The notes under the pieces are model-generated. The model was not told the origin of the DNA and did no database searches. It worked only from the letters and a program-made list of their open reading frames with translations. DNA of 64,000 nucleotides from an uncultured delta proteobacterium (lineage in GTDB: Bacteria > Myxococcota_A > UBA9160 > JAFDET01), in NCBI GenBank assembly GCA_947259215.1, contig CAMYLJ010000039.1:1-64000 (forward strand), given 5' to 3'. This document shows, in pieces, positions 51,789-55,678 of the stretch; the first letter of the stretch is position 1, and each line of letters starts with the position of its first letter. The position numbers were made by a program, and so were the translations under genes.

Positions 51789-52436
51789 GGTCCGCGCCAC
51801 GCAGATCGCCACCACCTCCCGGGCGCCAGCGCGGCGCAGCGCCCGGGCGGCCGCCGCCAGCGTGGCGCCGGTGGTGACCACGTCGTCGACCAGGAGCACC
51901 CGCCGATCCGCCGGGCCCGTGGCCCGGAAGGCGCCCGCCACGTTGCGCGCGCGCCCGCGGCGGTCGAGACCGGTCTGGCTGGGCGTGTCGCGCAGGCGCG
52001 AGAGCGCCGCGGGCGAGAAGCGCGCGCCGAGCTCGTCGGCGACGGCCCGCGCGACGAGCGCCGCCGGGTTGAAGCCCCGCGCGCGCTGGCGGCGGGGATG
52101 CAGCGGGATCGCGACCACCGGGCCCGGGCGGACGCCCCGGGCGGCTTCCCGGGCCAGCGCCCGCACCACCGCGCCGGGCCCCGGGTCCAGGCCGGCCCAG
52201 CCCGGCGCCGGGTACTTGAAACGCCGCAGCCAGGTCTCGGCTTCGCCGGCGAAGGCCACTGCGGCGTGGCAGGCGTCGACGCCGGGGATGAGCTCGGGCA
52301 GCGCGCCGGGGGCGAGCCGCGGCAGGCGCGCGTCGCACGCCGCGCACAGGGGGCGCGCGGCGTCCGGCGCCTGGCCGCAGCCGGCGCAGGCCGGCGGCAG
52401 CAGCAGGTCGGCGAGGTCGCGCAGCAGGGCGCGCAA
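51783..52436 (-). CDS. comF: ComF-family phosphoribosyltransferase-like protein
   Basis: A 217-residue protein with an N-terminal four-cysteine zinc finger (PPACAGCGQAP, PLCAACDARL) and a type I PRTase fold (VVAIPLHPRRQRARGFNPAA, SQTGLDRRGRARNVAGAF, and the PRPP loop VLLVDDVVTTGATL). ComF proteins take part in DNA uptake in competent bacteria, but the gene is widespread in species not known to be competent. It is the last gene of the long RNase/ribosomal-protein array and overlaps the PAS-HisKA-REC gene by 6 bases. Confidence 0.93.
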   Translation of the reverse strand: MRALLRDLADLLLPPACAGCGQAPDAARPLCAACDARLPRLAPGALPELIPGVDACHAAVAFAGEAETWLRRFKYPAPGWAGLDPGPGAVVRALAREAARGVRPGPVVAIPLHPRRQRARGFNPAALVARAVADELGARFSPAALSRLRDTPSQTGLDRRGRARNVAGAFRATGPADRRVLLVDDVVTTGATLAAAARALRRAGAREVVAICVARTL

Positions 52437-52466
52437 CGGGCTCTCCCCGGGACCGGGTGGGGGCGA

Positions 52467-55253
52467 TCAGAGCGTGTGTCGGACCCAGCCCGCGGGCTCG
52501 CGACGCAGGTCGGACGTGGGCCAGTACTGGAGGTCGAGCTTCAGGGTGATGACGTCCCGGCGGCCCTCGAGGTCCTCGGTGTGCAGGCGCACGGAGCCGC
52601 GGTCCGGCTTGGTTCCGACCGCGGCGAGGAAGCGGTCCAGGTCCGGCGTGGGCTGCCCGTCCACGGCCACGATGCGGCGGGTGGCGCCGAGCCCGTAGCG
52701 GTGGGCCGGAGACCCCCACCCGAACCACACCACATAAACGCCTTCGCGCGGGATGCCACGCTGGGTCGCCACTGCGCGATGCGGGTCCTGGAGCAGCGCC
52801 CCCGCCCACAAGAGCGCCCGTCCGGTGCCGCGCCCGGGCAGCACGTGGGTGGGCACCGTGCGCTCGATCGCTTCGCCGTCGCGCAGCAGGGTGAGGATCA
52901 CCGAGTCCCCGCGCAGGCTCGACTCGAGCTCGCGCACGCGCGTCACCGGCCTGCCGTCCACCGCCAGCAGCAGATCGCCCTCCTGCAGCTCTTGCGCCGC
53001 GGGGACGTCCGCCGCCCGGCGCACCACGGCCAGTACGCGGCGGCGGGACGGATCGTGATCCTCCAGCCGGCGCGCCCAGTCCTCCGAGAGGCCGCGGTTG
53101 CGAGCGGCCGCCAGCGAGAGCGGGGACACCTCGACCCCGATCGAGCGCCAGTCCACGGAGCGCCCCGCCGCCAGCGGTCCCATCACGTCGCGCAGCAGGG
53201 ACACGGGGATTCCCGCGAAGAAGGCCTGGGGTCCGTCGCTGCCCTGGCTCGAGAACGAGGCCCAGAGTGCAAGCACCCGGCCGCGCCCGTCGGCGAGCAC
53301 CCCGCCCAACGTCGAGGGAGCCTGGGAGAGCGCCACGAGCTCGACGTTAGTCTCGCGGAAGCGCGGCGGCGAGGTCAGGGGCAGCGACGCGAACTCGACG
53401 CGCGAGACGCGTGTGCGCTCCGACACCAGCTGCTGGGACTCGGTCATGCCCACCAGCCACACCTCGTCCCCGGCCTCGAGCTCGCCGTCGCGCAGCTCGG
53501 CGCTCCGCACCGGGGTCTCCCCCAGCAGCGCGGGGTCGTAGCGCAGGATCGCCAGGTTGTGCTCCGGGTGGATGTAGAGCACCTCGCCCGGCACCTGGAG
53601 CGAGCCGGCGAAGGTCAGGGTGGCGTCGCCCAGGGCGACCGGGAGGGTGTCCCGGTCGACGGCCACGAGGCCACGCTCGGCGTCCACCACCAGGCCCGCG
53701 CCCACGAAGGTCTCGCCGTGGACACCGTCCACGCGGAAGGGCACCTGGTAGCTCACCACCACGAGCGAGGGTGCGAGCTTGCGCAGCCGCTTGTCCTCGA
53801 AGTCGCGGTAGCGGGTGGTGGCTGGGGCGGCGGCCGCCTGCGGAGGGGGTGGCGGCGACGCGACACACGGCCAGCCGCCGCTGGCATCGTCGCGCCGGCA
53901 GCGGCGCATGGGGTACCAGCGCCGGTCCATGCGCACCACCGCGACCTGTTCGTTGTTCGGTACCTGGAGGCGGCGGTAGCGCATCGGGACCCGGGCGCCG
54001 TCCGGAAGCTCGGCCAGGGCGGCCTCGATCGCGTCGAGATCCGGCGTCGGCGTAGCAGCGACGCGCGTGATCACCGCCGCGCGCGGGATTCCGGCGCGCC
54101 GGAGCATGTAGCCCGGCGAGGCGACGTAGACGCCGCCCACGGGAACCGCGTAGTTGCGCGCCTGCTGGAACGACAGCTCGTTGAGTACGGCGCCTCCCAC
54201 TTCGAGGTAGGCTCGCGGCGTCACGGCGTGGAGGTCCGCCACCGGGAGCTCCAGCGCGACGTCCTCGCCCCCGCGCTGGACCGTCAGGCGCACGCTCCCG
54301 CCGACCCGATCGTCGAGCGCCTCTTCCAGCGGCAGGAAGTCCGTGACCAGCGTGCCCTCGATGCCGACGAGGACGTCGCCCGGCTCCAGCTGGCCGTCGG
54401 CGGGTCCCCCCGGCACGACCTCGTGCACCACGAGCATGCCGATGGCGTCGGCGTGGCTGCGGCGGGCGGCACGCTCCGTCTCGGGACGCAGCCCCAGCCG
54501 GCGCAGCTCGTCGTAGGGCTGGTGCTCGAACACCGCCTCGAGGGTGCCGCGCGCTACGGGCTCCCCGCGCCGGATCAGCTCCAGGGCGCGCACCACGCGA
54601 TCCAGGGGCAGGTAGTAGCTCGAGGCCGCGCGGGTGCGTCCGCCGGCGTTCAGCGCGATGACCCGTCCACTCTTGTCCAGCACCGGCGAGCCGGACGATC
54701 CGCCGGACGTGTTGGAGGCGGCCTGGAAGTAGAAGGTGTTGAAGTCGTTGTAACGGCCGCGGCCGTAGCGCGGGGCGGCGCGATCGAGCCGGGCCAGGGT
54801 GCCGGCCAGGATCGAGAGCTTCTCGCCGGCGTCGTTGCCCACCACGCGCACGTCGGCGCCGACCCGCGCCCGCCTCGGCGCCAGCGCGAGTTCCGTCTGC
54901 TGCATGAAGCGGACCTGGCTCGGGTCGTAGCGGAAGAACCCGAAGTCGTGGACGGGATCGCGGTAGACCGCGCGCACGTCCACCTCCTCGTGGTTCTGGA
55001 ACACCGCCTCGGCCACCACCGGGCCCGGGCCCACCACGTGGCGATTGGTCAGGATCAGGCCCTGCTCCGCGTCGACCACGAAGCCCGTGGCCACGGAGGC
55101 ACCGGTGGGCTCGGTGTCGAAGGCGCGCGGCGTGCTGACCCGCAGCACCACCACGGCCGGGACCACCCGCTCGAGCGTGGCCTGCCACACCGCGCCGCCC
55201 TCGTCGAGCACGGGCGCGCTCGCCAGCACCGCCGCCAGAACTGCACTCAGCAC
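52467..55253 (-). CDS. Nma111/Deg7-like tandem HtrA-type serine protease
   Basis: A 928-residue exported protein (signal peptide MLSAVLAAVLASAPVLDEGG). The first protease domain (about 20-230) is intact: His72 in ILTNRHVVGPGP, Asp103 in RDPVHDFGFFRYD and Ser187 in SGGSSGSPVL. PDZ domains follow near 250-340 and 385-445. A second, inactive protease domain (about 485-700) has VDRDTLP and HNLAILRYD at the His and Asp sites and STLGGVL for Ser. Two more PDZ-like parts lie near 735-815 and 850-905. This domain order, and blocks such as VRVVGNDAGEKLSILAG and YNDFNTFYFQAA, match yeast Nma111 and plant Deg7 as I remember them. A periplasmic quality-control role is likely. Confidence 0.9.
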   Translation of the reverse strand: MLSAVLAAVLASAPVLDEGGAVWQATLERVVPAVVVLRVSTPRAFDTEPTGASVATGFVVDAEQGLILTNRHVVGPGPVVAEAVFQNHEEVDVRAVYRDPVHDFGFFRYDPSQVRFMQQTELALAPRRARVGADVRVVGNDAGEKLSILAGTLARLDRAAPRYGRGRYNDFNTFYFQAASNTSGGSSGSPVLDKSGRVIALNAGGRTRAASSYYLPLDRVVRALELIRRGEPVARGTLEAVFEHQPYDELRRLGLRPETERAARRSHADAIGMLVVHEVVPGGPADGQLEPGDVLVGIEGTLVTDFLPLEEALDDRVGGSVRLTVQRGGEDVALELPVADLHAVTPRAYLEVGGAVLNELSFQQARNYAVPVGGVYVASPGYMLRRAGIPRAAVITRVAATPTPDLDAIEAALAELPDGARVPMRYRRLQVPNNEQVAVVRMDRRWYPMRRCRRDDASGGWPCVASPPPPPQAAAAPATTRYRDFEDKRLRKLAPSLVVVSYQVPFRVDGVHGETFVGAGLVVDAERGLVAVDRDTLPVALGDATLTFAGSLQVPGEVLYIHPEHNLAILRYDPALLGETPVRSAELRDGELEAGDEVWLVGMTESQQLVSERTRVSRVEFASLPLTSPPRFRETNVELVALSQAPSTLGGVLADGRGRVLALWASFSSQGSDGPQAFFAGIPVSLLRDVMGPLAAGRSVDWRSIGVEVSPLSLAAARNRGLSEDWARRLEDHDPSRRRVLAVVRRAADVPAAQELQEGDLLLAVDGRPVTRVRELESSLRGDSVILTLLRDGEAIERTVPTHVLPGRGTGRALLWAGALLQDPHRAVATQRGIPREGVYVVWFGWGSPAHRYGLGATRRIVAVDGQPTPDLDRFLAAVGTKPDRGSVRLHTEDLEGRRDVITLKLDLQYWPTSDLRREPAGWVRHTL

Positions 55254-55291
55254 GCTTCCCTCTCGTTACGCCGCTCTCGTGGGTTGGGGAC

Positions 55292-55678
55292 TCAACGGGC
55301 CCATTGCCGCGTCTCGATGTCCAGCTCGATGGGCGGAGCGTCGCTCCAGAGCCGCTCGAGATCGTAGAGCGCTCGCACCTCGCGCTGGAAGACGTGCACG
55401 ATCACGTCGCCGAGGTCGATCAGCACCCAGCGGCCGTCGTCGTGCCCTTCGACCCCCATGGGCTGCTGCCCGTCGCTGCGGGAGGCCTCGACCACGGCGT
55501 CGGCGATGGTGCGCACGTGGCGATCCGAGGTACCGGTGGCCAGGATGAACGTGTCGGCGAAAGACGCCAGCTCCCGCACGTCGAGGGCTACCACGTCCTC
55601 CGCCAGCTTGTCGGCGGCGGCCTCGGCGATGCGCAGGGCGCGGGCGCGCCGCGGATCCGGCTGCACCGTGACGGTCAC
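55292..55678 (-). CDS. rsfS: Ribosomal silencing factor RsfS
   Basis: A 128-residue protein that binds L14 and blocks subunit joining under starvation. Seen: DVVALDVRELASFADTFILA, GTSDRHVRTIADAVVEAS and GRWVLIDLGDVIVHVFQREV, the Iojap/RsfS motifs. The GTG start overlaps the nadD stop (GTGA), the common nadD-rsfS pairing. The 38-base gap to the protease gene holds no obvious terminator. Confidence 0.96.
   Translation of the reverse strand: MTVTVQPDPRRARALRIAEAAADKLAEDVVALDVRELASFADTFILATGTSDRHVRTIADAVVEASRSDGQQPMGVEGHDDGRWVLIDLGDVIVHVFQREVRALYDLERLWSDAPPIELDIETRQWAR

What the first reader, a model, noticed from the sequence alone, without database searches (positions are those of the whole stretch)
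52467..55253. Bacterial Nma111/Deg7-like tandem protease in a ribosome-linked operon
The protein has an active HtrA protease, two PDZ domains, a dead protease domain and two more PDZ-like parts, in 928 residues. That is the plan of yeast Nma111 and plant Deg7, and several blocks (NRHVVGPGP, DPVHDFGFFRYD, VGNDAGEKLSILAG, the near-terminal YWPTSDLRR) agree with those proteins from memory. Ordinary bacterial DegP/DegQ have one protease and two PDZ domains. It may show a bacterial origin or a transfer of this eukaryotic type. It carries a bacterial signal peptide.
Basis: partly seen in the sequence, partly recalled or inferred. Interest (0 to 1): 0.78.

Follow-up and report, generated by a model that had tools for sequence, protein, structure and literature searches.

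The report
Bacterial kin of yeast protease Nma111
This gene encodes a large exported bacterial protease with one working and one dead protease half, the same build as a nuclear protease of yeast and a chloroplast protease of plants; it belongs to a family spread through myxobacteria and gammaproteobacteria, which suggests the eukaryotic type has bacterial roots.

Summary
On the minus strand, 55253..52467 encodes 928 residues built as protease, PDZ, PDZ-like, dead protease, PDZ, PDZ-like. Two AlphaFold models (mean pLDDT about 91) confirm it. The first triad (H72-D103-S187) is unchanged in 116 of 116 diverse bacterial full-length relatives. The second is degenerate in all. N-halves and C-halves form two separate clades, so one old duplication made the family, not a local fusion. 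Relatives over the PDZ_1 cut-off occur in 83 of 284 sampled Myxococcota genomes and full-length ones in 8 of 143 from a gammaproteobacterial sample. None of 14 well-known control genomes has it over the cut-off. Yeast Nma111 and Arabidopsis Deg7, which I could only recall from memory, align end to end (37% and about 46% identity). They score 935 and 1041 bits with a bacteria-only profile, against 54-104 for ordinary HtrA. The 'ribosome-linked operon' is local to this family. New here: 114 of 116 relatives carry a paired cysteine (C452/C463) and nearly all an export signal. Nannocystales lack both, as do the recalled eukaryotic sequences. Best reading: an exported HtrA-type quality-control protease, the bacterial branch of the Nma111/Deg7 type. 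Direction of transfer is not resolved.

The parts
52467..55253 (-). Tandem HtrA-type protease gene, 928 aa, GTG start
   Evidence: homologues
55206..55253 (-). Hydrophobic N-terminus, residues 1-16, probable (weak) export signal
   Evidence: pLDDT <50; relatives carry clear signals or lipoboxes
54570..55187 (-). Protease domain 1 (residues 23-228), intact triad
   Evidence: Pfam Trypsin_2 55-201; model
55038..55040 (-). Catalytic His72 codon
   Evidence: H in 116/116 relatives
54945..54947 (-). Catalytic Asp103 codon
   Evidence: D in 116/116 relatives
54693..54695 (-). Catalytic Ser187 codon (GGSSGSP)
   Evidence: S in 116/116 relatives
54243..54536 (-). PDZ domain 1 (residues 240-337)
   Evidence: Pfam PDZ_6/PDZ_2/PDZ; model
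53931..54227 (-). PDZ-like domain 2 (residues 343-441), PDZ_1 type PF12812
   Evidence: Pfam 343-418; genome hit 77.7 bits
53898..53900 (-). Cys452, partner of Cys463
   Evidence: both Cys in 114/116 relatives, lost together
53865..53867 (-). Cys463, partner of Cys452
53169..53792 (-). Degenerate protease domain 2 (residues 488-695)
   Evidence: model and fold search of the C-half; triad replaced
53649..53651 (-). Asp535 in place of catalytic His
   Evidence: N/D/E mostly, no H among the residues listed
53556..53558 (-). Asn566 in place of catalytic Asp
   Evidence: N in 112/116
53304..53306 (-). Gly650 in place of catalytic Ser
   Evidence: G 66, D 46 of 116
52851..53150 (-). PDZ domain 3 (residues 702-801)
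   Evidence: second PDZ stretch; model
52539..52841 (-). PDZ-like domain 4 (residues 805-905), second PDZ_1
   Evidence: PF12812 hit at G000:C39:52602-52820, 28.4 bits
52500..52526 (-). C-terminal motif YWPTSDLRR; counterpart of RWYPMRRC.RDD at the end of the first half
   Evidence: W911/P912 invariant in A2

Best explanation
The gene encodes an exported, ATP-independent serine protease of the HtrA/Deg kind and belongs to the same tandem-duplicated type as yeast Nma111 and plant Deg7. Shown by sequence and models: one catalytically complete protease domain, a degenerate second one, four PDZ-type domains, a single old duplication, and wide but patchy presence in Myxococcota and gammaproteobacteria. 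Inferred: it is exported to the cell envelope; a disulfide (C452-C463) closes the end of the first half; PDZ domains present damaged or unfolded proteins to domain 1; and the dead domain serves assembly, as reported for AtDeg7, whose inactive domain is involved in trimerisation (PMC3473262). Inferred and less sure: eukaryotes received the type from bacteria, and the move to reducing compartments went with loss of the export signal and the cysteine pair.
For: Domains. Triad in 116/116, second triad degenerate, N566 in 112/116 and shared with both recalled eukaryotic proteins. Tree of halves: N clade 99, C clade 98, HtrA 100 (SH-aLRT). Bacteria-only profile gives recalled Deg7 1041 bits and recalled Nma111 935 bits end to end; ordinary HtrA 54-104 bits. 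BLASTP end to end. PDZ_1 over cut-off in 83/284 Myxococcota and in 0/14 controls; full-length in 8/143 of a gammaproteobacterial sample; at least 450 relatives in GTDB genomes. NCBIfam DegP/DegQ cut-offs missed by far (102.5 against 416.2 bits). Export. Cys pair; absent, with the signal, in nine Nannocystales genomes. Independent check on recall: the published N. crassa Nma111 orthologue triad His120/Asp151/Ser234 (PMC3434108) has the H-D spacing of 31 found here, and a D-S spacing of 83 that fits the first Ser of the SS pair. AtDeg7 length 1097 in PMC3473262 equals the recalled sequence.
Against: No verified eukaryotic sequence was available. Recalled Nma111 is 994 residues long, and I remember the true length as 997. 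The window protein's own signal peptide is weak. No oligomer, activity or substrate was tested. Tree positions of the two eukaryotic proteins conflict between trees and rest on long branches. The absence of the Cys pair in Nannocystales is a single evolutionary event.
Confidence: 0.78

Rival explanations
1. A local fusion or duplication of ordinary HtrA genes in this lineage, convergent with Nma111/Deg7.
For: Both halves have the general HtrA fold, and ordinary HtrA genes are present in the same genome.
Against: N-halves of all members, including the recalled eukaryotic ones, form one clade apart from HtrA and from all C-halves. The profile gap is about 900 bits against about 100. Dead-site residues are shared.
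Confidence: 0.03
2. The type arose in eukaryotes and was passed to bacteria.
For: Patchy presence in bacteria; the branch point of recalled Nma111 is unresolved and sometimes deep.
Against: Bacterial diversity is broad, with a deep bacterial-only lineage (L193/L194 at 30% identity) outside the recalled eukaryotic sequences in the C-half tree (SH-aLRT 94). Recalled Deg7 falls inside Myxococcota in several trees, weakly. Gene context varies between bacterial lineages.
Confidence: 0.12
3. The protein is mainly a holdase or scaffold: the dead domain and PDZ array bind clients and proteolysis is secondary.
For: Chaperone activity is reported for yeast Nma111/Ynm3 (PMC4877387); four PDZ-type domains and a conserved dead domain.
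Against: The triad is invariant and the motif GGSSGSP nearly so across 116 proteins, which fits selection for catalysis.
Confidence: 0.2
4. The dead domain of the bacterial protein does not mediate trimerisation; the active domain does, as in DegP.
For: No oligomer was modelled; the AtDeg7 finding may not hold for relatives, as that review notes (PMC3473262).
Against: Strong conservation of the dead domain across the family points to a shared role.
Confidence: 0.3

Closest known systems
Nma111 / Ynm3 (yeast nuclear HtrA-like serine protease; S. cerevisiae P53920)
   Same: Same six-domain order; live then dead protease; PDZ_1 type domains; 37% identity over 919 residues (recalled sequence); triad spacing as in the N. 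crassa orthologue.
   Different: Nuclear, no bacterial signal peptide; lacks the C452/C463 pair in the recalled sequence.
Deg7 (plant chloroplast, Arabidopsis At3g03380, Q8RY22, 1097 aa)
   Same: Same plan, PD-PDZ-PDZ-PDia-PDZ-PDZ (PMC3473262); about 46.5% identity overall, 55.7% in the N-half (recalled sequence).
   Different: Chloroplast stroma; longer linker between the halves; no Cys pair (recalled sequence).
DegP/DegQ/DegS and other ordinary bacterial HtrA
   Same: Trypsin-type protease plus PDZ fold.
   Different: One protease domain, about 450-500 aa; 25-30% identity over one half only; NCBIfam cut-offs not met.
Plant Deg2 / Deg9 (solved structures)
   Same: Protease with two PDZ domains; among the better global fold matches of the C-half (TM up to 0.60).
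   Different: Correspond to a single half only.

Membership tests
Nma111/Deg7 type (Deg clade III) | Protease-PDZ-PDZ-protease-PDZ-PDZ order in about 1000 residues | tested here: met
   Pfam, models and fold searches
Nma111/Deg7 type (Deg clade III) | Intact His-Asp-Ser triad in the first protease domain | tested here: met
   H72, D103, S187; 116/116 relatives
Nma111/Deg7 type (Deg clade III) | Degenerate triad in the second protease domain | tested here: met
   D535/N566/G650
Nma111/Deg7 type (Deg clade III) | PDZ_1 (PF12812) domains | tested here: met
   97 bits against cut-off 28, two stretches; no control genome over cut-off
Nma111/Deg7 type (Deg clade III) | Full-length homology to the eukaryotic proteins, half by half | tested here: inconclusive
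   Strongly positive but with eukaryotic sequences recalled from memory, checked only by length and published triad positions
Nma111/Deg7 type (Deg clade III) | Trimer formed through the degenerate protease domain (reported for AtDeg7) | not testable with these tools
   No oligomer prediction or experiment
Ordinary DegP/DegQ/HtrA (TIGR02037 and equivalogs) | Score over the curated family cut-off | tested here: not met
   102.5 bits against 416.2; others likewise
Ordinary DegP/DegQ/HtrA (TIGR02037 and equivalogs) | Single protease domain | tested here: not met
   Two protease folds

The most novel reading that the evidence does not exclude
Eukaryotic Nma111 and Deg7 descend from an exported bacterial tandem protease of Myxococcota-like bacteria, not from the mitochondrial or plastid ancestor. 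The move into reducing compartments was accompanied by loss of the export signal and of the C452/C463 disulfide, a step that Nannocystales bacteria show in parallel (or even share: a clade of Nannocystales with the two recalled eukaryotic proteins is not rejected, p-AU 0.18, though not favoured).
Probability: 0.4. Interest if true: 0.75.

Novelty: new variant of a known kind. Interest (0 to 1): 0.57.

Why it matters
The Nma111/Deg7 type has been described in fungi and plants, and a 2019 survey of 1,474 genomes placed PDZ_1 in only a few fungi and archaea and linked eukaryotic HtrA to the mitochondrial ancestor (PMC6411480). Here the same type is a broad bacterial family with an exported, probably disulfide-bearing form. 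That makes the origin of a eukaryotic nuclear/chloroplast protease testable with sequence data, offers bacterial homologues for structure and mechanism, and gives a natural contrast (Nannocystales) for how such a protease moves between oxidising and reducing compartments. None of the papers I could search describes the bacterial family; the held library is open-licence only, so prior description elsewhere cannot be excluded.

Tried and rejected
Viral contigs: no relatives with four queries. Plasmids: one partial weak hit. PDB by sequence: only ordinary HtrA, so no solved relative gave a eukaryotic sequence. Searching papers for recalled peptide strings found none, so recall could not be checked that way. 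Literature for Deg7 with Deltaproteobacteria, and for Nma111 with bacterial origin: nothing relevant. 'Ribosome-linked operon' as a clue to function: rejected, local to the window's family. Gene context as a clue in general: lineage-specific housekeeping neighbours (gcv genes in gammaproteobacteria), no shared partner. Whole-genome loci were first read on the wrong strand and redone. A first two-row alignment (A1) was a mistake and is not used. A careful full-length tree did not finish in time; the quick tree is used. A group including Nannocystales and the eukaryotes was tested: not rejected, not favoured.

Full report
WHAT IS THERE. The ORF at 52467-55253 is on the minus strand, starts with GTG after a good ribosome-binding site and encodes 928 residues. 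It sits 39 bases after rsfS and 31 bases before a comF/gntX-like gene, in a run obgE-proB-proA-nadD-rsfS-this-comF. Its composition (74% GC, GC3 0.93) matches its neighbours, so it is not a recent foreign piece. The genome has one copy and also several ordinary HtrA genes.

ANATOMY. Pfam finds two protease and two sets of PDZ stretches, with the PDZ_1 model (PF12812) at 97 bits against a cut-off of 28. AlphaFold2 on 46 aligned members gives a confident model (pLDDT 90.9, pTM 0.88), whose best PDB matches are DegQ and DegP. The C-half predicted alone (pLDDT 91.4) also matches DegP, DegQ, Deg2 and Deg9 (E 1.1e-23 to about 1e-17), so the second half is a complete protease-PDZ-PDZ unit. In an alignment of 116 non-redundant full-length bacterial members, His72, Asp103 and Ser187 never change; the matching positions of the second half are mostly Asp/Asn/Glu (535), Asn (566, in 112) and Gly or Asp (650). 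Both halves end in a similar tryptophan-containing motif.

A NEW FEATURE. Most members have exactly two cysteines (84 of 116), and C452 and C463 are both present in 114 of 116; the two exceptions lost both. In the model both lie in neighbouring short strands (450-453 and 463-465). Nearly all members have a hydrophobic export segment (105 of 115 with mean hydropathy over 1.8 in the 45 residues before W23; several of the rest have a clear signal further upstream), and L191/L192 end theirs in a lipobox (LTSC/LTAC). The two exceptions are Nannocystis bainbridge and a relative. Nine genomes of that order with an intact gene all lack the Cys pair and show no export segment. I infer a disulfide formed in an oxidising compartment, and a cytoplasmic form in Nannocystales. 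This is one evolutionary contrast, not many.

FAMILY AND SPREAD. Among 40 relatives of the window's genome 21 carry a homologue over at least half the query, 20 of them over the full length at 52-72% identity. A scan of GTDB species genomes found at least 450 loci; the best 80 are in Deltaproteobacteria/Myxococcota and gammaproteobacterial records, including Thioalkalivibrio sp. XN8, Steroidobacteraceae, Woeseiaceae and Nannocystis. Samples: PDZ_1 over cut-off in 83 of 284 Myxococcota genomes and none of 14 controls; full-length members in 8 of 143 of one gammaproteobacterial sample; only a handful of about 900-residue frames in 398 Pseudomonadota. Other phyla were not sampled beyond the controls.

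ONE OLD DUPLICATION. In a tree of 29 N-halves, 29 C-halves and 12 ordinary HtrA, the three sets are each one side of a strongly supported branch (99, 98, 100). Thus the tandem form arose once, before the divergence of everything sampled. A local fusion is excluded for the bacterial sequences without any use of recalled data.

EUKARYOTIC RELATIVES. No tool here holds eukaryotic proteins. Checks on recall: Deg7 is 1097 residues, as published; the published triad of the N. crassa Nma111 orthologue, His120/Asp151/Ser234 (PMC3434108), has spacings 31 and 83, matching recalled Nma111 (121/152/235) and the window protein (72/103/186, first Ser of the pair). The recall could still be coloured by sequences seen here. 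With that caveat: BLASTP aligns Nma111 over 919 residues at 37% and Deg7 in two parts at 55% and 37%; a profile from bacteria alone gives 935 and 1041 bits, against 54-104 for ordinary HtrA; Deg7 is closer to the window protein (46.5%) than to Nma111 (34%); their N- and C-halves fall in the bacterial N and C clades. Where within the family they branch is unresolved: Deg7 tends to sit among Myxococcota, Nma111 moves, and their being one clade is not rejected (p-AU 0.19).

CONTEXT. The rsfS/comF neighbourhood is found only in the window's own family. In 37 of 62 long loci, mostly gammaproteobacterial, the gene lies downstream of glycine-cleavage genes (gcvT, gcvH, gcvPB), often with a PfkB-type kinase and a peroxiredoxin nearby. 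The context is stable within lineages but has no shared partner, so it says little about function and nothing about ribosomes.

HOW IT MOST LIKELY WORKS. By established knowledge of HtrA proteases, PDZ domains bind exposed hydrophobic or C-terminal segments of damaged proteins and the trypsin-type domain cleaves them without ATP. The invariant triad argues for real proteolysis. For AtDeg7 the inactive domain is involved in trimerisation (PMC3473262), and chaperone activity is reported for the yeast protein (PMC4877387); I carry both over as inference. The bacterial form most likely does this in the envelope.

NOVELTY. Architecture and mechanism class are known from eukaryotes; a broad bacterial, exported, cysteine-paired branch was not described in any paper I could search. 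I therefore call it a new variant of a known kind.

Noticed in passing
L118, L187, L215-L223: Nannocystales members lack both the export segment and the C452/C463 pair, unlike essentially all other bacterial members; likely a cytoplasmic form.
   Followed up: yes
L063-L117 (gammaproteobacterial loci), 0.5-5 kb upstream of the gene: The tandem protease gene lies downstream of glycine-cleavage genes gcvT, gcvH, gcvPB, often with a PfkB-type kinase and a peroxiredoxin; unexplained stable linkage.
   Followed up: partly
L193 and L194 (G643, G635); L191 and L192 (G302, G631): Two deep bacterial lineages of the tandem protease at about 30% and 35% identity to the window protein; L191/L192 have lipoboxes, so are probably lipoproteins.
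   Followed up: partly
window 52098-55367 (+): A 1089-aa open frame lies antisense over the whole gene; no homology support, most likely a high-GC shadow frame.
   Followed up: no
L018 (G021:C63:58543-61305): The homologue in this genome has one in-frame TAA near the start of the protease domain; decaying gene or sequencing error.
   Followed up: no
L182/L183 (G142) and L185/L186 (G219): Two divergent copies in one genome, so the family has paralogues in some Myxococcota.
   Followed up: no
L225/L227 (G842:C2:4280557-4282973): In one Nannocystales genome the gene appears split in two frames, first part ending near position 456 and second starting near 447 of the model: frameshift or natural split.
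   Followed up: no
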